A DNA stretch of 34,294 nucleotides from Comamonadaceae bacterium OH2545_COT-014. GTDB lineage: Bacteria; Pseudomonadota; Gammaproteobacteria; Burkholderiales; Burkholderiaceae_C. Under the pieces are notes generated by a model that saw only the letters and a program-made list of their open reading frames with translations, searched no databases and was not told where the DNA came from. The stretch's first letter is position 1, and each line of letters opens with the position of its first letter. Of the stretch, positions 5,541-21,776 are shown piece after piece. Location of the stretch: contig RQYR01000031.1 in assembly GCA_003859965.1 (NCBI GenBank), positions 1 to 34,294 of the forward strand. Reading direction: 5' to 3'. The translations under genes were made by a program, and so were the position numbers.

Positions 5541-7258
5541 GGCGCAGGGGGCGCAGCGGTGGCAAGGGCGGTGGGATTGGGCGGCAGGGCCGTGGCGGGC
5601 AGCGCCAGCGGGGCCAGGTCGGGCGTGATGGCGCGCAGCCGCTGGGCGTGGGCCAGCAGCGAACGCTTGGCCACGGGCCAAGCTTGGCGGGGCACGTCGG
5701 CGTAGGCGTGGGCCACCCAGTCATCCAGCGTGCCGTGCGGCAGGGCGCGCAGGGCGGCGAGCACCTTGGCCTCGCGCGCCAGGCGGTGGGCCTTGAGGCG
5801 GGCGATGGTGGCGCGCGCTTCGTGCATGACGTGGCCGTGGGCGGGCAGGATGAACTGCACGCCGTGGGCGGCGCAGGCGGCGTCGAGCTTGTCGAGCGAG
5901 TCCAGGTAGGCGCTCATGTCGCCGTCGGGCGGGTCCACCACGGTGGTGCTGCCGCTGAGGATGTGGTCGCCGCTGAACAGCAGGCCGTCTTCTTCAAGCA
6001 GCAGGCAGACGTGGTTGGCGGCGTGGCCGGGGGTGTGCAGCACGCGCAGGGTGTGGGTGATTTCGCCCCCCAGGGCAGGCTCCTTCAGCGTGAGCAGCTC
6101 CTGATCTTGTAGCGCCCGTTGGGGCGTGAAGCGGCTGGCGGGGCGGGCGGTGGGTTGCGAGGGCAGGCCCAGCACGGGCGGGCGGCCGCCGCACAGGGCT
6201 TGCAGCGGGTAGGCGCCGGGCGAGTGGTCAGCGTGCGAGTGGGTGCAGACGATGGCGCGGATGTCGCCGCCCGCGGCCTGCCACAGCCGTTGCAGGTGGG
6301 CGGGGTCGTGCGGGCCGGGGTCGATGGCGATGTAGCCGCTGGCGGCGCTGCCCACCAGGTAGCTGTTGGTGCCGGGGCCGGTCATGAAGCCGGGGTTGGG
6401 CGCGGTCAGGCGCAGCACGTTTTTCAGCAGCGGCACGGGCTGGGCGCTTTGCCAGTCGAGCGCGTGGCCCATTTGGCCGTCGGGGCAGGTCAGGGCCAGC
6501 TCGCCAAAAGGCGGCTCGTGTTCCATGTAACGCGCCTCGCGCCCGGCCAGCGTGCCGGCGCGCGGGCAGCTTGTCCACAGCGGCTGCTCGCCGGCGCAGG
6601 CGGCGAGGGCGGCGTTGGCATCGGGCCACTGGCGCAGCCGCTCCAGCGTGCGGATGGTAGGAAAAATCATGTGGAACTGCCCGGCGGCATGGCGCGCCAG
6701 CGCGTCGGCGGGGCGTACCCACTCGGGGGCGAACTGCTCGGCGCCGTCGGCCACGGGGGTCTGGCCGGCAGGCATGTGGGCCACGAAAAAGGGCACGTCG
6801 TAGCGGCGCGGCAGGTCGCGGTCGGTGAGCCAGCGCGCCAGCCAGAACACGTCGGCCGCGGCCAGGCGCAGGCCGCGCGCGGCGCACTGGGCGGCCAGCG
6901 GGGCATGGCGGTCGAGGGCGGCCACGTCGCCAGCGGTGGCGGGCGTGCCGTCGGCGCGGCGGGCCAGCAGCACGCCCACTTCTTCAAAACATTCGCGGAT
7001 GGCAGCCAGGGCGGCGGTGAGGGTGTTGTCGTCCTGCGCGGCGCGGCGGGTGGCATGGGCGTGGGCGGCGGCATCCTGCGCGTCGATGACGCCGCCCGGA
7101 AACACGTAGGCGCCGGGCGCGAAGCGGGCGGCCGGGTGGCGGCGCGTCATCAGCACCTCCAGCCCCTGCGCGCCATCGCGCAACAGCAGCAAGGTGGCGG
7201 CGGGCAGCAGGGGCGCGGGCGTGCGCGGCGGGTGCAAAAGCTGGCTGGGGCGGGGCAT
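5537..7258 (-). CDS. Nudix hydrolase-metallo-beta-lactamase fusion protein
   Basis: A 573-aa two-domain protein. Residues about 10-240 form a Nudix-like domain (FPGGVID, then RECFEEVGVLLA matching the RExxEExG core), with a longer spacer between the Gly and RE parts than the classical Nudix box. Residues about 290-530 form an MBL-fold hydrolase with the zinc motif THSHADHSPG and later HTPGHAANH, SGDHIL and PAHGH ligand segments. The arrangement resembles LACTB2-like hydrolases with an N-terminal Nudix-like region; substrate unknown (CoA/acyl-phosphate-type Nudix plus a hydrolytic MBL is a guess). The start at 7258 (MPRPSQ) is chosen because a CATAAT -10-like box (7274-7269) lies only 10 bases upstream, implying a very short leader. 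Transcribed divergently from pepP, with ATGA overlap to the DUF1513 gene downstream. Confidence 0.82.
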   Translation of the reverse strand: MPRPSQLLHPPRTPAPLLPAATLLLLRDGAQGLEVLMTRRHPAARFAPGAYVFPGGVIDAQDAAAHAHATRRAAQDDNTLTAALAAIRECFEEVGVLLARRADGTPATAGDVAALDRHAPLAAQCAARGLRLAAADVFWLARWLTDRDLPRRYDVPFFVAHMPAGQTPVADGAEQFAPEWVRPADALARHAAGQFHMIFPTIRTLERLRQWPDANAALAACAGEQPLWTSCPRAGTLAGREARYMEHEPPFGELALTCPDGQMGHALDWQSAQPVPLLKNVLRLTAPNPGFMTGPGTNSYLVGSAASGYIAIDPGPHDPAHLQRLWQAAGGDIRAIVCTHSHADHSPGAYPLQALCGGRPPVLGLPSQPTARPASRFTPQRALQDQELLTLKEPALGGEITHTLRVLHTPGHAANHVCLLLEEDGLLFSGDHILSGSTTVVDPPDGDMSAYLDSLDKLDAACAAHGVQFILPAHGHVMHEARATIARLKAHRLAREAKVLAALRALPHGTLDDWVAHAYADVPRQAWPVAKRSLLAHAQRLRAITPDLAPLALPATALPPNPTALATAAPPAP

Positions 7259-7322
7259 GGTGACGGCGATTATGGGCGGGCGCGCCAGGCGGACGGGCGG
7301 GCATCCGCTAAGCTCGCGCTCC

Positions 7323-8813
7323 ATGACCACGACTGAAAACACCCACGGCGTCCGTGGCGCGGTGGCGGAGGGCGCAGGCCGCCAGGCGGCAGAAGCCGCT
7401 TGCCATGTTCATGCGGCCCGCCGCGCGCGCCTGGCGGCCGACATGGCCCGCCTGGCCGGCCCGGACGCGCTGGCGCTGATCCCCACTGCGCCGGAACGCC
7501 AGCGCAACCGCGACAGCGACTTTCCCTACCGCCACGACAGCTACTTCTATTACCTGACTGGCTTTGCCGAGCCGCACGCTTGGCTGGCGCTTACCGGCGA
7601 TGGGCGCAGCCGCCTGTTTTGCCAGCCCAAGGACATGGAGCGCGAGATCTGGGACGGCATCCGCCTTGGCCCCGAGGCCGCGCCCGCCGCGCTGGGCGTG
7701 GACGAGGCGTATTCGGTGGACGAGCTGGACGCGCGCCTGCCCGCGCTGCTGGAAAACCGCAGCGCCGTGTTCTACCCCTTTGCCACGCACGAAGGGCTGG
7801 CCGCGCGGGTGGAAGGCTGGCTGCAGAAAGTGCGCGCCCGCGTGCGCTACGGCGCGCTCGCGCCCGCCGCGCAGCATGACGCCTGCGCGCTGCTGGACGA
7901 AATGCGCCTGGTGAAAGACGCGCACGAGCTGGACCTGATGCGCCGCGCCAGCGTCATCAGCGCGCGCGCCCACGTGCGCGCCATGCAGCGCAGCGCCGCC
8001 ATGCTGCGCGCCGGGCAGGACGTGCGCGAATACCACCTGGAGGCCGAGCTGCTGCACGAATTCCGCCAGAGCGGGGCGCAGTTTCCGGCCTACGGCAGCA
8101 TCGTGGCCGCCGGCGCCAACGCCTGCGTGCTGCACTACCGCGCCAGCGACGCGCCCATCCGCGACGGCGAGCTGGTGCTGATTGACGCGGGCTGCGAGCT
8201 GGACGGCTACGCCAGCGACATCACCCGCACCTTTCCGGCCAACGGCCGCTTCACCGGCCCGCAGCGCGCGCTGTACGAGCTGGTGCTGGCCAGCCAGCAG
8301 GCCGCCATTGACGCCACGCGGGCTGGCGCGCGCTTCACCGACCCGCACGAGGCCACCGTGCGCGTGCTCACCCAGGGCCTGCTCGACCTGGGCCTGCTGG
8401 ACAAGAACCGCCACGGCGGCGTGGACGACGCCATCGCCAGCCGCGCCTACTTTCGCTACTACATGCACCGCACCGGCCACTGGCTGGGGATGGACGTGCA
8501 CGACTGCGGCAGCTACGTGGAGCCGTCCGAAGTGGGGCAGGCGAGCGAGCGGCGTGATCCGCTGTCGAACGAAGTCATCGTCAGCCGCCCCAGCCGCATC
8601 CTGCGCCCCGGCATGGTGTTGACCATCGAGCCGGGCCTGTACGTGCGGCCGGGCGACGATGTGCCGCGCGAGTTCTGGAACACCGGCATCCGCATCGAAG
8701 ACGACGCCGTGGTCTCCGCCACCGGCTGCGAGCTGCTCACGCGCGGCGTGCCCGTGGCCGCCAGCGAGATCGAGGCGCTGATGCGCGACCAGCCCCGCCA
8801 TGACGCCGCCTGA
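7323..8813 (+). CDS. pepP: Xaa-Pro aminopeptidase P
   Basis: A 496-aa cytosolic metallopeptidase that removes an N-terminal residue preceding proline. An AMP_N domain (about 30-170, with RNRDSDFPYRHDSYFYYLTG typical of the family) is followed by a pita-bread M24 domain. The dimetal ligands are visible in order: Asp in LIDAGCEL, Asp in SDITRTFP, His in HRTGHWLGMDVHD, Glu in TIEPGLY and Glu in IRIEDD. The start at 7323 is the first ATG after a divergent 64-base gap with the Nudix/MBL gene. The first 25 residues are poorly conserved in type, so a later start is possible. The MOSC gene begins 14 bases before this stop, which suggests cotranscription. Confidence 0.93.
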   Translation: MTTTENTHGVRGAVAEGAGRQAAEAACHVHAARRARLAADMARLAGPDALALIPTAPERQRNRDSDFPYRHDSYFYYLTGFAEPHAWLALTGDGRSRLFCQPKDMEREIWDGIRLGPEAAPAALGVDEAYSVDELDARLPALLENRSAVFYPFATHEGLAARVEGWLQKVRARVRYGALAPAAQHDACALLDEMRLVKDAHELDLMRRASVISARAHVRAMQRSAAMLRAGQDVREYHLEAELLHEFRQSGAQFPAYGSIVAAGANACVLHYRASDAPIRDGELVLIDAGCELDGYASDITRTFPANGRFTGPQRALYELVLASQQAAIDATRAGARFTDPHEATVRVLTQGLLDLGLLDKNRHGGVDDAIASRAYFRYYMHRTGHWLGMDVHDCGSYVEPSEVGQASERRDPLSNEVIVSRPSRILRPGMVLTIEPGLYVRPGDDVPREFWNTGIRIEDDAVVSATGCELLTRGVPVAASEIEALMRDQPRHDAA

Positions 8814-9468
8814 CCTGCCCCGCAACGCCCTGGCCGCGCCGCATGAGGCCGTGATGGCCCAAGGCGCCGTGCAGGCCGTGTGCGTGGGCCTGGCCAAACC
8901 CGTGAACCTGGGCGGCCGCCGGCTCACCAGTGCCATCGGCAAGCGCACGGTGGACGGGCCGGTGGCCGTGTACCCGCTGGGCCTGACGGGCGACGAGCAG
9001 GCCGACTGGAGCGTGCATGGCGGCCTGCAACGGGCCGTGTACGCCTACCCGGCCGAGCACATCCCTTTCTGGCTGGCGCAGCGCCGCCTGCATGGCGTGC
9101 CGGTGCAAGAGGGCGCGGACAGCCTGGCGGGCGACCCGGCGCTGCCACCCGGCTGCATGGGCGAGAACCTGCGCATCACCGGCTTGCTGGAAGAGCAGGC
9201 CTGGGTGGGCGACACGCTGCATTTCATCGGCTCCGACTGCGTGCTGCGCATCACCGCGCCGCGCGAACCCTGCGACAAGTTCTGCGCCGTGATGGGCTTT
9301 GCCGAAGCCGCCCGCGTGATGGTGCGCGAGGCGCGCTGCGGCTTTTACCTGGCCGTGCAATCGCCCGGCCAGCTGGCCGCGGGCATGCGCTTTGTGGTGC
9401 GGCCCGGCTCGCGCGGGCTGTCGGTGGCCGAGGCCATTCGCGCCAAGTGGGCCAAGCACCGGCTTTGA
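8800..9468 (+). CDS. MOSC domain protein (YiiM-like)
   Basis: A 222-aa protein with a MOSC (molybdenum cofactor sulfurase C-terminal) domain over most of its length. It shows the YiiM-type signatures VHGGLQRAVYAYP, GCMGENL and ITAPREPCDKF, where the Cys in PREPC is the conserved sulfur/substrate-binding residue. YiiM-type proteins reduce N-hydroxylated compounds with molybdenum cofactor in E. coli; that role here is by family only. It overlaps pepP by 14 bases. An internal ATG at residue 19 (MAQGAVQ) is an alternative start nearer to the conserved domain. Confidence 0.88.
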   Translation: MTPPDLPRNALAAPHEAVMAQGAVQAVCVGLAKPVNLGGRRLTSAIGKRTVDGPVAVYPLGLTGDEQADWSVHGGLQRAVYAYPAEHIPFWLAQRRLHGVPVQEGADSLAGDPALPPGCMGENLRITGLLEEQAWVGDTLHFIGSDCVLRITAPREPCDKFCAVMGFAEAARVMVREARCGFYLAVQSPGQLAAGMRFVVRPGSRGLSVAEAIRAKWAKHRL

Positions 9469-16849: not shown

Positions 16850-17134
16850 CTACGGCAGCGTGTTTTGCTGACCGGGGCCAGACAACCCTTCATCCAATTC
16901 CAATAGCGCCATGCGGCGCTCCGCATCGGCCAGCACCTCCGCCGCGCTCATGTCCAGCGCCTGGCATAGACGCAGCAGCATCCGCACGCTGGGGCTATTG
17001 CGCCCCAGTTCAATCAAGGACAGGTAATTGCGGTCCATCCCCGCGCGCAGCGCCAGCTCGGTCTGGCTCCAACCCCGTTCCGTGCGCAGCTTGCGCAGTG
17101 CCTGCCCCAGCGCCTGATCCACCACCTCCGCCAT
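16850..17134 (-). CDS. XRE-family helix-turn-helix regulator
   Basis: A 94-aa DNA-binding protein, essentially a single Cro/CI-type HTH. LGQALRKLRTERGWSQTELA leads into the helix-turn-helix, GMDRNYLSLIELGRNSPSV contains the recognition helix, and LLRLCQALDMSAAEVL closes the five-helix fold. A short acidic tail follows. The ATG at 17134 is chosen for its MAEVVDQALG start; a GTG at 17173 would add 13 residues and cannot be excluded. It is divergent from the WYL regulator, with about 190 AT-rich bases between, so it may control the island to its right, its own gene, or both. Confidence 0.85.
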   Translation of the reverse strand: MAEVVDQALGQALRKLRTERGWSQTELALRAGMDRNYLSLIELGRNSPSVRMLLRLCQALDMSAAEVLADAERRMALLELDEGLSGPGQQNTLP

Positions 17135-17321
17135 GGCGCGAGCGTGCGGCAGCAAATGCCGGTATTTCTGCACATATACGGCAGTAAATTATGATTACAA
17201 TTTGACTTGAAAAGTGACAAATGGACTTTTTGAAGCGCTTTGCCCAGGGCCTGAAGGTGCGGCACAAGCTGTCGCACCCGCTTCCTAGACTGCCTTCACC
17301 GTTTTGCCTTTCGCCACAAGC
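17135..17321. promoter_or_regulatory. Divergent control region between XRE and WYL regulators
   Basis: These 187 bases separate two oppositely transcribed regulators. The portion 17165-17225 is AT-rich, unlike both genes. On the minus strand TTGTCA (17220-17215) and CATAAT (17193-17188) are present but 21 bases apart, too far for a standard promoter; TTGACT (17202-17207) occurs on the plus strand. I infer the island's promoters lie here, but no complete promoter or operator is proven. Confidence 0.35.
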
Positions 17322-18308
17322 ATGCAGCCTGCCCGCCTCACCCGCCCGACGCATCACGCCAAAAACGAAAAGCTGGCTTGGCGCATCGCGCACATCATCG
17401 CCCGACTGCACCAGGGCGATGCGCTCGACAAACGGCAACTGGCCGCGGACTTTGGCGTGGACGTGCGCACCATCGAGCGCGACCTGCACCAGCGCCTGCG
17501 CGGCATCATCGAACGCAACGCCGAAGGCCGGTGGCAGCTCAGCGCCGCGGCGCGCGGCACCGTTCCGGCGAGCTATCTTGAAGGCTACGCCCAGCTCACC
17601 GGCACCCAGGGCTTCTTCCCAGACACCAGCCGCGGCTGGCTCATCCGTCAGCTTGAAACCGGCCCCGCCCACACCGGCCTGCATGCGCAAGCCACCCCCG
17701 CCGAAGACCTGCGCGCCCAAGGCGCCCTGTTCGAGCAGCTGCAAAACGCTGTGCAGCAGCGCCACCCCTGCCGCTTCACCTACAAAGGCAAACCGCGCCA
17801 CGCCCAGCCCCTGCGCCTGATCCAGCGTAACGGCGTGTGGTACCTGGCCGCCGCCGAAGTGCCGGGTGACACCCCGCACCCCAAGAACTTCAGCGTCAGT
17901 CTCATTCAAGACCTGCTCGTGGACCAGGCCAGCCGCTTTGCCCGCAACCCTGCGCACCAGCGCTACATCGACGAACAGCAAGACGTGTGGTTCACCAGCC
18001 AGGCCACCGAAGCCGTGCTGCGCGTCAGCCCCCAGGCTGCCCACTACTTCACCCGCCGCCCGCTGCTGCCCCACCAGCACACCCGCGCCGACACCGACGG
18101 CAGCCTGCTCGTCACCACCCGCATCCACCACCCCCAGCAACTTCTGCCCGTAGTGCGCTACTGGCTGCCGCACGTGCGCATTCTCAAGCCCGATGCGTGG
18201 CATGAGGCGCTGCTGGACAGCCTGCGCGAAAGCCTGGCGGCCTGGGGCGCGGCTCAGACGGCTGCCGGTACGGGATCAGTGGATGAACAAACCGATTTCA
18301 ACCAATAG
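17322..18308 (+). CDS. WYL-domain transcriptional regulator
   Basis: A 328-aa regulator: N-terminal winged HTH (about 15-75, with LDKRQLAADFGVDVRTIERD as the helix-turn-helix), WYL domain (about 140-205) containing the defining GVWYLAAAEV at 171-180 and a basic RFTYKGKPRHAQPLRL strand, and a C-terminal WCX-like extension (about 225-305). WYL domains bind nucleic acid or nucleotide ligands and often control phage-defence loci (BrxR/CapW type). The ATG at 17322 is preferred over a TTG at 17304. The SHOCT gene follows within 11-29 bases, and the other island genes lie in the same direction, so it is probably the island's regulator. Inference of a defence role rests on family and neighbourhood only. 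Confidence 0.9.
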   Translation: MQPARLTRPTHHAKNEKLAWRIAHIIARLHQGDALDKRQLAADFGVDVRTIERDLHQRLRGIIERNAEGRWQLSAAARGTVPASYLEGYAQLTGTQGFFPDTSRGWLIRQLETGPAHTGLHAQATPAEDLRAQGALFEQLQNAVQQRHPCRFTYKGKPRHAQPLRLIQRNGVWYLAAAEVPGDTPHPKNFSVSLIQDLLVDQASRFARNPAHQRYIDEQQDVWFTSQATEAVLRVSPQAAHYFTRRPLLPHQHTRADTDGSLLVTTRIHHPQQLLPVVRYWLPHVRILKPDAWHEALLDSLRESLAAWGAAQTAAGTGSVDEQTDFNQ

Positions 18309-18337
18309 AAAGGCGCTTCATGAAAGGTGGAGGATTC

Positions 18338-18625
18338 ATGGTCTTTATTTTTCTGCTGTTCTGCCTGCTTTTTGGCGCAGGGATGGTGATCAACGCCATT
18401 GGCAACATATTCAAGAGATGGCGTAACAAAGACGAGCCAAAGCAACCGCAGGAAACGCCAGTGCAAATACCTGTTATGAAAAGCGCCATCGATCCGCTGG
18501 CAGAAACCCTGAGGCAAATAAGGGAGGCGAGCGAACTGCACAAGACAGGCGCCATTTCGGCGGAGGAGTTTCTGCTTCTGAAGCAAAAAATCCTAGGCGC
18601 GGTGCCCCGGAGGGAAAGGGGGTGA
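18338..18625 (+). CDS. Small membrane protein with C-terminal SHOCT domain
   Basis: A 95-aa protein. The N-terminus is a hydrophobic anchor (MVFIFLLFCLLFGAGMVINAIG), followed by a basic/proline-containing linker and a SHOCT (short C-terminal) domain: LRQIREASELHKTGAISAEEF and LLLKQKIL match its pattern of a coiled helix, Gly-Ala-Ile-Ser turn and EEF helix. SHOCT domains are thought to mediate oligomerisation. The start at 18338 is chosen because GGAGG lies just upstream; an ATG at 18320 would add six residues (MKGGGF) largely encoded by that ribosome-binding site. It follows the WYL gene closely, so cotranscription is likely. Confidence 0.75.
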   Translation: MVFIFLLFCLLFGAGMVINAIGNIFKRWRNKDEPKQPQETPVQIPVMKSAIDPLAETLRQIREASELHKTGAISAEEFLLLKQKILGAVPRRERG

Positions 18626-18739
18626 TGTGTTTCTTTCGGAAAATGAAATTATTGCGGAGTTTTTTCTTTTTAAGGGGCTTGGTAAGTGATTTCAGGTGAA
18701 TATTTTGTGTTTTTTGTGTTTTTTGATGAAAGGTGAAAG

Positions 18740-19363
18740 ATGGGGAATAGTAAAAAATCTCTTACTGAGAAGGTGAGTGATACGCTTCATTCAGCTTTTG
18801 ATTATGTTATTGATACTAGGGGAGGTTACTTTTCAGATAATCCGGAAAAACTCCCGGATGTGGTTGGTATAGAAGGCATGATAAATTCCTATGCGAGAAA
18901 TAATGCTGCAATTTCTGGTGGTGCCAGCCTGATTCCTGGACCATTGGGAATGGCGGCAATTTTGCCAGAGTTGACGCTGGTTATAAAAAACCAGGTTCAG
19001 ATGGTTTATGACATTGGCGTGGCGCATGGCAAGCAAGCTCAAATAACAAAAGAGTTGTTGATTGGTATATTTGTTACCGCAGCGGGGACGAGCGCAGGGG
19101 GTGTTATTGCTGTTCATGGTGGTAGAATTTTAGTTAAACGTGCCTCGCTGCGTGTTATTCAAAAAGTTGTTGCAATGCTGGGCGGCAGAATTACCCAGCA
19201 AGCCCTGAAGTCAGCCCTAAGCAAGTGGATTCCATTTGCAGGGGCTGCTGCTATGGCTTATTGGTCAAATTACATGACCAAGAGCATTGGTAAAAAGGCT
19301 GATGAGCTTTTCAGGATGGATATTAAAGATGATCCAGATACATTGGATATAGAAATTGAATAA
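18740..19363 (+). CDS. EcsC/DUF697-like glycine-rich membrane-associated protein
   Basis: A 207-aa protein with three glycine/alanine-rich hydrophobic regions (about 56-80, 105-130 and 163-178). The segment IPGPLGMAAILPELTLVIKN then QVQMVYDIGVAHG resembles the PGP...Q-x2-MVxxI-x4-G core of EcsC/DUF697-type proteins, which associate with membranes and have no settled activity. AAAGGTG lies about 9 bases before the ATG. The gene and the 114 bases before it are markedly AT-rich compared with neighbouring genes, which points to separate, recent acquisition. The YaaW-like gene follows 39 bases downstream. A 10-bp palindrome (19371-19380) lies between. Family call is by motif memory and is moderate. 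Confidence 0.65.
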   Translation: MGNSKKSLTEKVSDTLHSAFDYVIDTRGGYFSDNPEKLPDVVGIEGMINSYARNNAAISGGASLIPGPLGMAAILPELTLVIKNQVQMVYDIGVAHGKQAQITKELLIGIFVTAAGTSAGGVIAVHGGRILVKRASLRVIQKVVAMLGGRITQQALKSALSKWIPFAGAAAMAYWSNYMTKSIGKKADELFRMDIKDDPDTLDIEIE

Positions 19364-19370
19364 ACTAATT

Positions 19371-19380
19371 GAGTGCACTC
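19371..19380. repeat. 10-bp perfect palindrome GAGTGCACTC
   Basis: It lies between the stop of the EcsC-like gene and the start of the YaaW-like gene and is followed by TTTTAATATTTT. It has no loop, so it is not a normal terminator hairpin; a dimeric regulator site is possible. No other copy was noticed. Confidence 0.3.
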
Positions 19381-19402
19381 TTTTAATATTTTGGGGATAA
19401 AA

Positions 19403-20188
19403 ATGGCATACCGAGAAGATGATGACTTGAAGTTTCTTGGCGAGATGGAGAGCGAGGTGCTGAGCGATCTGGTGGATGTGCTCACGAAGGACAAGGACGG
19501 AAGCGCAAGATTGACGGAGGAGCTGACGTCAAGCGAACTTTACAAGCAGCATGCGCCGGATCACAACAAATACTGGGAGTTGATTGCGGCGGAGATTCAG
19601 CTTTTTGGCGGCAATACGATCGTCAGCAACGTGTTCCGGCTTGGCAAGGGTGTTCTTTATCGCGAGGTGCTCCAGGACGTTTGCGACAAGCTCAAGGTGC
19701 AATACGCAAAGCATGAGTCTGTGGAGAGCATCGAGGCCCAGCTGCTCGCCAAGCTGTTTGCTGACATGATGGACAAAATGTCCGCTGATGAGCGCGAGGA
19801 GTTTGCCAAAGTCGTGGGCCTGGAGGCCGTGAAAACATTCGCGCCAGAGGCCATGGCGGCGGCAGTCCAGGCCGCCATCATCGCAGGGGGATTCGCTTCT
19901 TACCGCATTGCATTGATCGTGGCCAACCAGGTGAGCCGCGCCCTGTTGGGGCGCGGGTTGACCTTGGCGGCGAACGCCACGCTGGCGCGAACCATTGGCG
20001 TGATCAGCGGGCCGATTGGCTGGGCGGTGACAGGCGCATGGACCCTTGTCGATATCGCCAGCCCGGCGTTTCGTGTGACGCTGCCCGCGGTTGTGCATGT
20101 GGCGCTGCTGCGGAAAATGCACCGCGCCAAAGTTGAAGGCTTGATCAAAGAGCTGGAAAAAGAGCTGGCGGGTGGCGCTGCTGCGTAG
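19403..20188 (+). CDS. YaaW/UPF0174 family protein with DUF3944 N-terminus
   Basis: A 261-aa protein resembling E. coli YaaW in order and motifs. A short DUF3944-type N-terminus (DDDLKFLGEMESEVLSDLVD, then LTKDKDGSARLTEEL) is followed by YWELIAAEIQLFGGNTIVS, a helical middle (LYREVLQDVCDKLKV), a glycine/alanine-rich membrane-like segment (about 150-215, with GPIGWAVTGAWTLVDIASPAFRVTLP split over it) and a basic C-terminal helix. The molecular function of the family is unknown to me. The ATG at 19403 has GGGGAT upstream; a GTG at 19373 would add ten residues. Base composition moves from AT-leaning at the start to the genome norm by the end. The HEPN gene begins 21 bases after the stop. Confidence 0.82.
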   Translation: MAYREDDDLKFLGEMESEVLSDLVDVLTKDKDGSARLTEELTSSELYKQHAPDHNKYWELIAAEIQLFGGNTIVSNVFRLGKGVLYREVLQDVCDKLKVQYAKHESVESIEAQLLAKLFADMMDKMSADEREEFAKVVGLEAVKTFAPEAMAAAVQAAIIAGGFASYRIALIVANQVSRALLGRGLTLAANATLARTIGVISGPIGWAVTGAWTLVDIASPAFRVTLPAVVHVALLRKMHRAKVEGLIKELEKELAGGAAA

Positions 20189-20209
20189 GCGTTTGATGAC
20201 TCGTCAGCT

Positions 20210-20872
20210 ATGCCCATGAGTACAAAGGATGTCGTGGCGCATCTCGTGGAGCGCCACCAGACCTTGGTGGCGCAAGGCCGCACCGGCCTGACCTTGCGCA
20301 TGCACCGCGCGCTGAGTTGGCTGAAGCGCGCGGAGGCGGCGGCGGGGGACGACGATGTGGCGTTCATTTGCCTGTGGATCGCCTTCAATGCGGCGTATGC
20401 GCAGGAGCTGGAAGGCGGTTCGGAAAAGGCGTTGTTCAAGCAGTTCATGCGGCGGGTTTGCGATCTGGATCACTCCCGCTTGCTGTATGCGCTGGTGTGG
20501 CGCGATTTTTCGGGGCCGATCCGGAACTTGCTGAACAACCATTACGTTTATCAGCCGTTCTGGGATTGCCTGAACAGCGGCGGCGATGAGGCCGAGTGGC
20601 GCGGCGCGTTCGATGGCGCGAAGGCGGCGGCGGGCCGGGCGCTGGCGCGGCAGGATACGGCGCAGGTGCTGTTTACGGTGTTTCAGCGCCTGTACACGCT
20701 GCGCAACCAGTTGGTGCATGGCGGGGCCACGTGGGCCAGTTCGGTCAACCGGGCGCAGGTGCGCGACGGGCGGGCGATTCTGGCGCGGGTGCTGCCGGCC
20801 ATGCTGGCCGTGATGATGGATGAGCCGGGGCATTTTCAGGCGCCGCCTTTTTATCCGGTGGTGCAGGGCTGA
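20210..20872 (+). CDS. HEPN-superfamily protein, putative ribonuclease
   Basis: A 220-aa all-helical protein. Residues 165-170 read RNQLVH, a match to the R-x4-6-H motif of catalytic HEPN domains (metal-independent RNases of toxin and defence systems). FICLWIAFNAAYAQELEGG at 52-70 is a typical first-helix signature of the MAE_28990/Apea-like HEPN groups. The region between these is compatible with the helical bundle; the C-terminus carries a further helix and a short tail. No partner nucleotidyltransferase or classical antitoxin is adjacent; a zinc-ribbon protein follows 83 bases downstream. Start at 20210 or at the second ATG at 20216; neither has a strong ribosome-binding site, so coupling to the YaaW-like gene is possible. 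Confidence 0.75.
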   Translation: MPMSTKDVVAHLVERHQTLVAQGRTGLTLRMHRALSWLKRAEAAAGDDDVAFICLWIAFNAAYAQELEGGSEKALFKQFMRRVCDLDHSRLLYALVWRDFSGPIRNLLNNHYVYQPFWDCLNSGGDEAEWRGAFDGAKAAAGRALARQDTAQVLFTVFQRLYTLRNQLVHGGATWASSVNRAQVRDGRAILARVLPAMLAVMMDEPGHFQAPPFYPVVQG

Positions 20873-20955
20873 TTGACCTGGCGCTTTCAGTGGTGGAGTG
20901 ATGCCTCCTGTTGTTTTGGCAGCGGGCGGGCTTTTTTTGATGAGGGAGAAAACAA

Positions 20956-21162
20956 ATGTGCGTGGCGCCAAGGAAGCCCTGGGCGTTTTACTGCCCAGCC
21001 TGCCGGTGGCGGAAGGCGGTTTTTCCAAGGTCAGACTGTTTTTACCTGGGGCGGGATTGGTTTGAGTCGTGTCCGAAATGCGGCAATGAGAGCTTGGAGC
21101 GGAAAGACGCGAGCGTGCTTGAGACCTTGCAGTTCAAGCTGGGGATACGTCCGAACGGCTGA
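20956..21162 (+). CDS. Small zinc-ribbon protein
   Basis: A 68-aa protein with two CxxC knuckles, CPAC (13-16) and CPKC (39-42), spaced as in a rubredoxin-like zinc ribbon. A short basic C-terminal helix follows. GAGGGAG lies about 9 bases before the ATG at 20956. It sits directly after the HEPN gene in the same direction and may be its partner (RNA-binding or inhibitory), which is inference. Otherwise of unknown function. Confidence 0.75.
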   Translation: MCVAPRKPWAFYCPACRWRKAVFPRSDCFYLGRDWFESCPKCGNESLERKDASVLETLQFKLGIRPNG

Positions 21163-21278: not shown

Positions 21279-21776
21279 GTGATTGCACGACTTCTGGCGG
21301 CGCCGCGCCGCGTTCTGGTGGGGATCAGCGTGGCCTGTCTGGGCATGCTGGCCTTTGGCATCTTCTATTTGCAGGGGGTGGTGGGCTTGCAGCCTTGCCC
21401 CATGTGCATCGTGCAGCGTGAGGCGCTGATTCTGGTGGCGGTTTTTTGCGCGCTGGCGGCGCTTCGGCCGGGGCGCAGCTGGCGGCGCGCGTTCATGGCG
21501 CTGGCGTTGCTGGCGGCGGGGTTTGGCGCGTTCACGGCGGCGCGTCAGAGCTGGCTGCAATGGAACCCGCCGCCGTTTGCCACGTGCGGGCGTGACCTGT
21601 ACGGCATGATCGAGTCGCTGCCGCTGCAGCGGGTGATTCCCATGATCTTCAAGGGCGGCGGCGACTGCGCGGCGGTGGACTGGACGTTTCTGGGCGGCAC
21701 CATCGCCAACTGGTCTTTCATGTGGTTCGCGTTCTGCGTGGTTGCCTTGCTGGCCCTGTGGCTGCGGCGGGCCTGA
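21279..21776 (+). CDS. dsbB: Disulfide bond formation protein B
   Basis: A 165-aa inner-membrane quinone reductase that reoxidises DsbA. Four TM segments with two periplasmic cysteine pairs: C40/C43 in QPCPMC and C103/C130 in the second loop (ATCGRDL and GGDCAAVDW), the classical DsbB arrangement; the Arg after the first pair (VQRE) is at the position used for quinone interaction. The start is GTG at 21279 with only a weak ribosome-binding site. It forms the right border of the accessory island and ends at a bidirectional terminator. Confidence 0.95.
   Translation: MIARLLAAPRRVLVGISVACLGMLAFGIFYLQGVVGLQPCPMCIVQREALILVAVFCALAALRPGRSWRRAFMALALLAAGFGAFTAARQSWLQWNPPPFATCGRDLYGMIESLPLQRVIPMIFKGGGDCAAVDWTFLGGTIANWSFMWFAFCVVALLALWLRRA

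What the first reader, a model, noticed from the sequence alone, without database searches (positions are those of the whole stretch)
16850..21162. Accessory island with XRE, WYL, SHOCT, EcsC-like, YaaW-like, HEPN and zinc-ribbon genes between hemA and dsbB
Seen: six co-oriented small genes with short gaps, headed by a WYL regulator and divergent from an XRE regulator, between two housekeeping genes. Composition is mosaic, with an AT-rich core. Known: WYL regulators often control phage-defence loci, and HEPN domains with R-x4-H are RNases in toxin and abortive-infection systems. Inference: two membrane-active proteins (EcsC-like, YaaW-like), a membrane SHOCT protein and a HEPN RNase could form a stress- or infection-triggered system. 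I do not know a described system with this composition.
Basis: partly seen in the sequence, partly recalled or inferred. Interest (0 to 1): 0.78.

Follow-up and report, generated by a model that had tools for sequence, protein, structure and literature searches.

The report
JukA defence locus with EcsC-like neighbour
A small bacterial gene cluster carries a relative of JukA, a known sensor of phage infection, next to an unusual membrane-type gene where its known partner JukB would be expected, inside a regulator-headed cassette whose parts turn up at other places in related genomes with other cargo.

Summary
The genes are there as described: a divergent XRE gene, then WYL, SHOCT, EcsC-like, YaaW-like, HEPN-like and zinc-ribbon genes on the + strand. 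The key correction: the YaaW-like protein (19403-20188) is JukA, sensor of the published Juk (jumbo phage killer) system (PADLOC JukA 255 bits). None of the seven window proteins matches JukB. A remote relative of the EcsC-like protein (profile match 92%) is encoded upstream of JukA in one other genome, G284; JukB is unrelated to it. The full set recurs nowhere that I searched, but parts do. XRE occurs in 4 of 29 genus genomes, always divergent from WYL, with different flanks. Zinc ribbons accompany WYL at five loci and HEPN at three. G015 has XRE-WYL-SHOCT and zinc ribbon-HEPN on two contigs, without close EcsC or JukA matches. WYL homologues elsewhere lie beside EcsC-like or dynamin genes. 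Best reading: a JukA-based anti-phage locus with an EcsC-like candidate effector, inserted in a WYL-headed cassette. JukA with varied effectors is already described, so this is a new variant of a known kind. Function, operon structure and the EcsC-JukA partnership are inferred.

The parts
16850..17173 (-). XRE/Cro-type HTH regulator, divergent from WYL
   Evidence: HTH_3 58 bits; in 4 of 29 genus genomes, own included, each time next to WYL
17322..18308 (+). WYL-WCX transcription regulator, head of the cassette
   Evidence: WCX 47.8, WYL 38.1 bits; homologues at 12 other places, split ones counted once
18320..18625 (+). small membrane protein with C-terminal SHOCT-like segment (start may be 18338)
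   Evidence: SHOCT 22.9 bits, below cut-off; one strong hydrophobic helix; same gene type after WYL in G015, SHOCT 18.2 bits, below cut-off
18740..19363 (+). EcsC-like protein, candidate membrane-acting effector beside JukA
   Evidence: EcsC 25.3 bits, below cut-off; PADLOC PDC-S30 26.8, PDC-S29 23.3 bits; 68% homologue in G005; profile match to the EcsC-like protein beside JukA in G284
19403..20188 (+). JukA (YaaW/DUF3944), predicted phage-infection sensor
   Evidence: PADLOC JukA 255 bits, E 1.7e-76; DUF3944 49 bits
20210..20872 (+). HEPN-like protein with R165-x4-H170; forms a recurring pair with the zinc ribbon
   Evidence: motif invariant in 7 homologues; next to a zinc-ribbon homologue in G015 and G292
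20956..21162 (+). zinc-ribbon protein (two CxxC)
   Evidence: sub-cut-off zinc-ribbon hits; homologues near WYL in G005, G105, G027 by tblastn and in G026 by reading; beside HEPN in G015 and G292

Best explanation
This is a JukA-based anti-phage locus without a recognisable JukB, carried in a WYL-headed cassette. Shown here: JukA identity; no JukB match among the seven window proteins; the EcsC-like gene 39 bases upstream of JukA; remote homology of its product to one beside JukA in another genome; recurrence of XRE-WYL (4 genomes), WYL with zinc ribbon (5 loci) and HEPN with zinc ribbon (3 loci), window included each time. Inferred: XRE and WYL control expression; JukA senses the incoming phage at the infection site, as reported for JukA in Pseudomonas; the EcsC-like protein is recruited and perturbs the phage vesicle or host membrane in the place of JukB; SHOCT sits in the membrane; HEPN, with the zinc ribbon, is an RNase arm. 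EcsC and JukA, the AT-richer core, were probably inserted into an older XRE-WYL-SHOCT-HEPN-zinc ribbon cassette.
For: JukA 255 bits. JukB models of the same library score 413 and 372 bits on the partners in G292 and G153 and match none of the seven window proteins at E up to 1. EcsC-like genes lie upstream of JukA in the window and in G284 (L032); hhalign 92%, E 6.3e-7 over 152 columns; JukB comparison 0.1%. The window's EcsC-like protein also matches directly, 28% over 205 residues, E about 1e-7, a Klebsiella plasmid protein of the G284 type. In a tree of 24 JukA rows the window falls outside a group of three JukB-linked ones (93/97). WYL matches 3 of 61 neighbours kept at 26 other JukA loci. 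XRE-WYL-ZnR-EcsC recurs in G005 between M20- and M50-peptidase genes. G015 has XRE-WYL-SHOCT and zinc ribbon-HEPN without EcsC at E 1e-10 and with only a 30% JukA-like hit elsewhere. Review: JukA works with diverse effectors, and JukB forms pores.
Against: EcsC beside JukA was seen at only 2 loci (the window and 1 of 26 others); in G284 the gap is 216 bases. In G005 the EcsC-like gene stands in a genome without a JukA match at E 1e-8, so it may serve the WYL cassette and not JukA. Relatives of the G284 EcsC protein on six plasmid records have no JukA match in the stretches fetched (tblastn E up to 0.01). The profile match rests on a two-row alignment. JukA alone can protect (review), so no partner is required. 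EcsC and JukA differ in composition. JukAB itself gave no protection against the panel of one study in PAO1 (PMC12735699, passages). The EcsC model failed (pLDDT 38.7).
Confidence: 0.5

Rival explanations
1. JukA here is a stand-alone defence gene that landed inside a WYL cassette; the EcsC-like protein serves the cassette and not JukA.
For: G005 has XRE-WYL-ZnR-EcsC without JukA. Several JukA loci show no recognised partner among the frames kept. Review: JukA alone can protect. GC3 0.37 v 0.73 for EcsC and JukA.
Against: EcsC-like gene beside JukA also in G284 with profile homology; WYL beside JukA at three other loci, two of them near-identical.
Confidence: 0.33
2. A pile-up of unrelated small accessory genes with no joint function.
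For: The full set recurs in none of the other genomes searched. At 7 of 10 HEPN loci, the window included, no other window gene matches nearby (five of those seven stretches reach only about 1.5 kb or are plasmid stretches of 12.6 kb).
Against: XRE, WYL, zinc ribbon and EcsC recur together at another site in G005; XRE is next to WYL in 4 of 4 genomes; HEPN and zinc ribbon are neighbours in G015 and G292.
Confidence: 0.1
3. A membrane-stress response locus, not phage defence.
For: EcsC, SHOCT and dynamin-type proteins act at membranes (general knowledge, recalled); no phage test exists for this locus.
Against: JukA family has tested anti-phage action in Pseudomonas (review; PMC12571901 passages); JukA homologues occur on plasmids, phage-plasmid-like records and viral contigs.
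Confidence: 0.05

Closest known systems
Juk (jumbo phage killer) system, JukA-JukB
   Same: JukA family protein, 255 bits to the PADLOC model
   Different: No JukB among the seven window proteins; EcsC-like gene upstream instead; WYL/XRE regulators, SHOCT, HEPN, zinc ribbon; JukA lies outside a three-row JukB-linked group in the tree, though a fourth, weakly JukB-linked row (L058) is not in that group either
Phage-defence candidates PDC-S29 / PDC-S30 (PADLOC)
   Same: Weak matches of the EcsC-like protein (23-27 bits); same for G005 and, for S29, G284
   Different: Low scores; the models carry no description in the library
WYL-regulated defence loci
   Same: WYL regulator heads the cassette; PADLOC WYL 90 bits
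   Different: WYL loci that I recall regulate BREX or CRISPR; here the cargo looks membrane-acting
Leo-type dynamin systems (PADLOC LeoA/LeoBC)
   Same: WYL homologues lie beside dynamin genes at four loci; two of the four score as Leo-like
   Different: No dynamin in the window's set

Membership tests
Juk system | JukA protein | tested here: met
   255, 233 and 86 bits to three JukA models
Juk system | JukB partner (JukAB form) | tested here: not met
   no JukB match among seven window proteins at E up to 1; EcsC v JukB profile 0.1%; HEPN v JukB 0.3%; the rest of the genome was not searched for JukB
Juk system | JukA with another effector, as the review describes | tested here: inconclusive
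   EcsC-like neighbour at 2 loci with remote homology; no functional data
Juk system | protects against nucleus-forming phages | not testable with these tools
   needs a phage assay
EcsC family (PF12787) | Pfam score above cut-off | tested here: not met
   25.3 bits v 30.4; 19.8 in G005, 18.9 in G284
HEPN RNase | R-x4-6-H motif conserved | tested here: met
   R165 and H170 invariant in 7 of 7
HEPN RNase | HEPN profile match or fold | tested here: inconclusive
   no Pfam match at E up to 1; structure job for it not accepted, machine busy
WYL regulator | WYL and WCX domains above cut-off | tested here: met
   38.1 and 47.8 bits

The most novel reading that the evidence does not exclude
A movable cassette with a fairly constant frame (divergent XRE, WYL regulator, small membrane/SHOCT protein, zinc ribbon, at times HEPN) carries exchangeable membrane-attacking modules (EcsC-like, dynamin, patatin-dynamin, JukA) and is thus a regulated platform for membrane-level phage defence; in the window JukA has been joined to the platform's EcsC effector, a JukA-EcsC sensor-effector pair of which I found no description (searches, in a library that lacks the original Juk paper).
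Probability: 0.35. Interest if true: 0.65.

Novelty: new variant of a known kind. Interest (0 to 1): 0.48.

Why it matters
If true, JukA sensing can be coupled to an EcsC-like membrane protein, a family with no settled role that I recall, and a WYL-headed cassette would link several membrane-acting defence modules under one regulator. That makes EcsC function and effector swapping in Juk systems directly testable.

Tried and rejected
Rejected: six genes as one recurring system (no second genome with the set). Rejected: insertion between ancestral neighbours hemA and dsbB. Rejected: EcsC-like as a divergent JukB. Withdrawn on recheck: HEPN as a wholly separate passenger; a zinc-ribbon homologue lies beside it in G015 and G292, so I raised the novel case from 0.30 to 0.35, lowered the pile-up rival from 0.12 to 0.10, and raised interest from 0.45 to 0.48. 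Rejected as evidence: promoter and terminator scans (2 and 5 sites, about chance). Short repeats only, no tRNA in the window, no Rfam match. A palindrome between EcsC and JukA is no more frequent than chance at two mismatches (3 matches; 36 of 100 shuffles reach 3).

Led nowhere: EcsC and HEPN searches of viral contigs, two weak partial hits for the G284 EcsC protein there that I did not follow, EcsC in plasmids, solved-structure searches (no convincing hit), EcsC model of mean pLDDT 38.7, so no fold search was run. The original Juk paper is not held; I read passages of a review (PMC13282480) and of two papers (PMC12571901; PMC12735699). Searches: WYL domain with JukA, 0 papers; three of EcsC domain/WYL/SHOCT/dynamin/YaaW/phage defence, 0 papers; three of YaaW/phage/effector/JukB, the review and one unrelated paper; WYL, dynamin and phage, 1 unrelated paper; EcsC with anti-phage or defense system, 8 of 483 listed, none holding EcsC; two searches were listings. 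Judged from listings only.
Full report
What is there. The window holds a divergent XRE gene (16850-17173 -), then WYL (17322-18308), a SHOCT-type small membrane protein (18320-18625), an EcsC-like protein (18740-19363), a YaaW/DUF3944 protein (19403-20188), a HEPN-like protein (20210-20872) and a zinc ribbon (20956-21162), all + strand, before dsbB at 21279. Gaps are 11, 114, 39, 21 and 83 bases. The composition is mosaic: GC3 is 0.83 in WYL and HEPN, 0.62 in SHOCT, 0.37 in EcsC-like and 0.73 in YaaW and zinc ribbon. Promoter and terminator scans gave no more than chance. XRE, WYL and DUF3944 pass Pfam cut-offs; SHOCT, EcsC and the zinc ribbon do not, and HEPN has no Pfam hit at E up to 1.

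The YaaW-like protein is JukA. It matches three PADLOC JukA models at 255, 233 and 86 bits. None of the seven window proteins scanned matches JukB at E up to 1; the rest of the genome was not searched for JukB. As a positive control, the gene after JukA in G292 and in G153 scores 413 and 372 bits for JukB with the same library. Juk is a published immune system; the original paper is not held. Passages of a 2026 review (PMC13282480) say that JukA senses early phage proteins at the vesicle around the injected genome, works with diverse effectors including phospholipases and transcription regulators, that JukB forms pores, and that JukA alone sometimes protects. In one study JukAB in PAO1 gave no clear resistance to its phage panel, which its authors put down to the lack of an activating phage (PMC12735699, passages).

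What stands beside JukA elsewhere. I examined 26 other JukA-family loci from plasmids, viral contigs and genomes. Left out beforehand: L036 and L037 (looked at), L049-L054 (near-copies of L048, L026, L027) and L118, L120, L121 (same genus as one kept). At the 26, 61 neighbour frames of 60 to 1100 residues within 700 bases were kept; longer frames were dropped, one locus (L127) gave none, and frames were picked by length, so some may be false. Several loci are near relatives of each other (L026/L027, L056/L057, L035/L060). Of the 61, 4 match JukB, 3 match PADLOC WYL and 5 match HTH_3. At most one matches Pfam EcsC at E up to 0.01, since the families shared by two or more members are all shown; it is the one in G284: 18.9 bits, below cut-off, and 26.8 bits to PDC-S29, upstream of JukA with a gap of 216 bases. 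Pairwise BLAST between it and the window's EcsC-like protein is weak (E 0.016), but profile comparison gives 92% and E 6.3e-7 over 152 columns, on a two-row and a four-row alignment. The window protein also matches a Klebsiella plasmid protein of the G284 type directly (28%, E about 1e-7). The same profile comparison with a JukB alignment gives 0.1%. Against the pairing: relatives of the G284 protein on six plasmid records have no JukA match in the stretches fetched. A 24-row JukA tree puts the window outside a three-row JukB-linked group L034, L035, L060 (93/97, below the program's star level), but its exact place is unresolved and a fourth JukB-linked row, L058, is not in that group.

The cassette. 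XRE occurs in 4 of 29 genus genomes, own included, each time divergent from a WYL homologue. WYL occurs in 7 genus genomes. The chance of all four falling among seven of 29 is 0.0015 if genomes were independent, which they are not. The flanks differ: hemA and dsbB here; M20 and M50 peptidase genes (which I read as dapE and rseP) in G005; a GTP_EFTU protein that I read as cysN on one side in G015; a pyridine-nucleotide reductase on one side in G008 (the last two contigs end on the other side). In G005 the order is XRE, WYL, small membrane frame, zinc ribbon, EcsC-like (68%), with no JukA match at E 1e-8 in the genome. Zinc-ribbon homologues lie near WYL in G005, G105 and G027 by tblastn and in G026 by reading frames. 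Dynamin-family proteins above the Pfam cut-off lie beside WYL at four loci (G105 twice, one fused to patatin; G026; G118), of which two resemble PADLOC Leo proteins. The WYL proteins at G118 and the second G105 locus are only 35-37% identical to the window's. At three of the 12 other WYL loci the homologue is only 31-35% identical and no dynamin was tested beside it (G045, G102, G041).

HEPN and G015. R165-x4-H170 is invariant in 7 of 7 homologues. 6 of 299 genomes, own included, have a match, and 25 plasmid records, most of them from genera that I recall as alphaproteobacterial. Of 10 HEPN loci compared with all window genes, 3 have a zinc ribbon beside HEPN: the window, G292 (36.5%, just downstream, as here) and G015 (43.5%, just upstream); at the other 7 only HEPN matches (the window locus is known). 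In G005 HEPN lies 175 kb from the WYL locus. G015 has XRE-WYL-SHOCT to the end of one 5-kb contig and zinc ribbon-HEPN on another 3.3-kb contig. Whether the two belong together cannot be told from these contigs. G015 has no EcsC match at E 1e-10 and only a 30% JukA-like hit elsewhere. This fits the view that EcsC and JukA, the core with the lower GC, entered an older XRE-WYL-SHOCT-HEPN-zinc ribbon cassette; that is an inference.

Distribution of the others. JukA, own included: 7 of 299 relatives, 3 of 369 drawn from the class, 9 of 398 from the phylum, 2 of 101 relatives of G284 (neither of them the window's genome). [quoted passage not shown] EcsC-like: 7 of 100 genomes, own included, with only G005 close and the other five 30-33% identical.

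Conclusion. The locus is a Juk variant without a recognised JukB. The EcsC-like gene is the best candidate effector, on thin evidence (two loci). The WYL-headed cassette with changing membrane-acting cargo is the broader and perhaps more interesting pattern. Function is untested.

Noticed in passing
L103, L104, L107, L108: Dynamin-family genes beside homologues of the window's WYL regulator; in L108 patatin and dynamin are one protein.
   Followed up: partly
L056 6001-7450 and L057 6001-7455: JukA directly followed by a WYL regulator in two similar viral contigs.
   Followed up: partly
L026 4522-5753 and L027 4512-5753: HTH gene directly upstream of JukA on Escherichia phage-plasmid-like records.
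   Followed up: partly
L168 5060-5901: HEPN followed by a zinc ribbon in G292, near an ATPase-like gene (6989-9073, read by eye); the same genome has JukA-JukB on another contig (L034).
   Followed up: partly
L108 2307-3965: One open frame joins a DUF445-like start (read by eye) to a WYL protein; in L112 WYL is followed by a zinc ribbon (below cut-off) and DUF445.
   Followed up: no
L025 6887-7360, L105 5958-6926, L111 9090-10082: Homologues of PADLOC candidate PDC-M09A near JukA at one locus and near WYL at two others.
   Followed up: no
L114, L119, L122: JukA-like segment at the start or end of frames of about 580-600 residues, so probable fusions.
   Followed up: no
window 19403-20188: NCBIfam model NF007593, which matches this YaaW/JukA protein at 121 bits (cut-off 395), is named acidic protein MsyB; the name looks doubtful.
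   Followed up: no
window 19371-19380: Perfect 10-base palindrome GAGTGCACTC between EcsC-like and JukA; no second exact copy of the 12-base pattern that holds it.
   Followed up: partly
L028 5962-7686: HEPN homologue on a Croceicoccus plasmid between SbcCD-type and ParDE genes.
   Followed up: no
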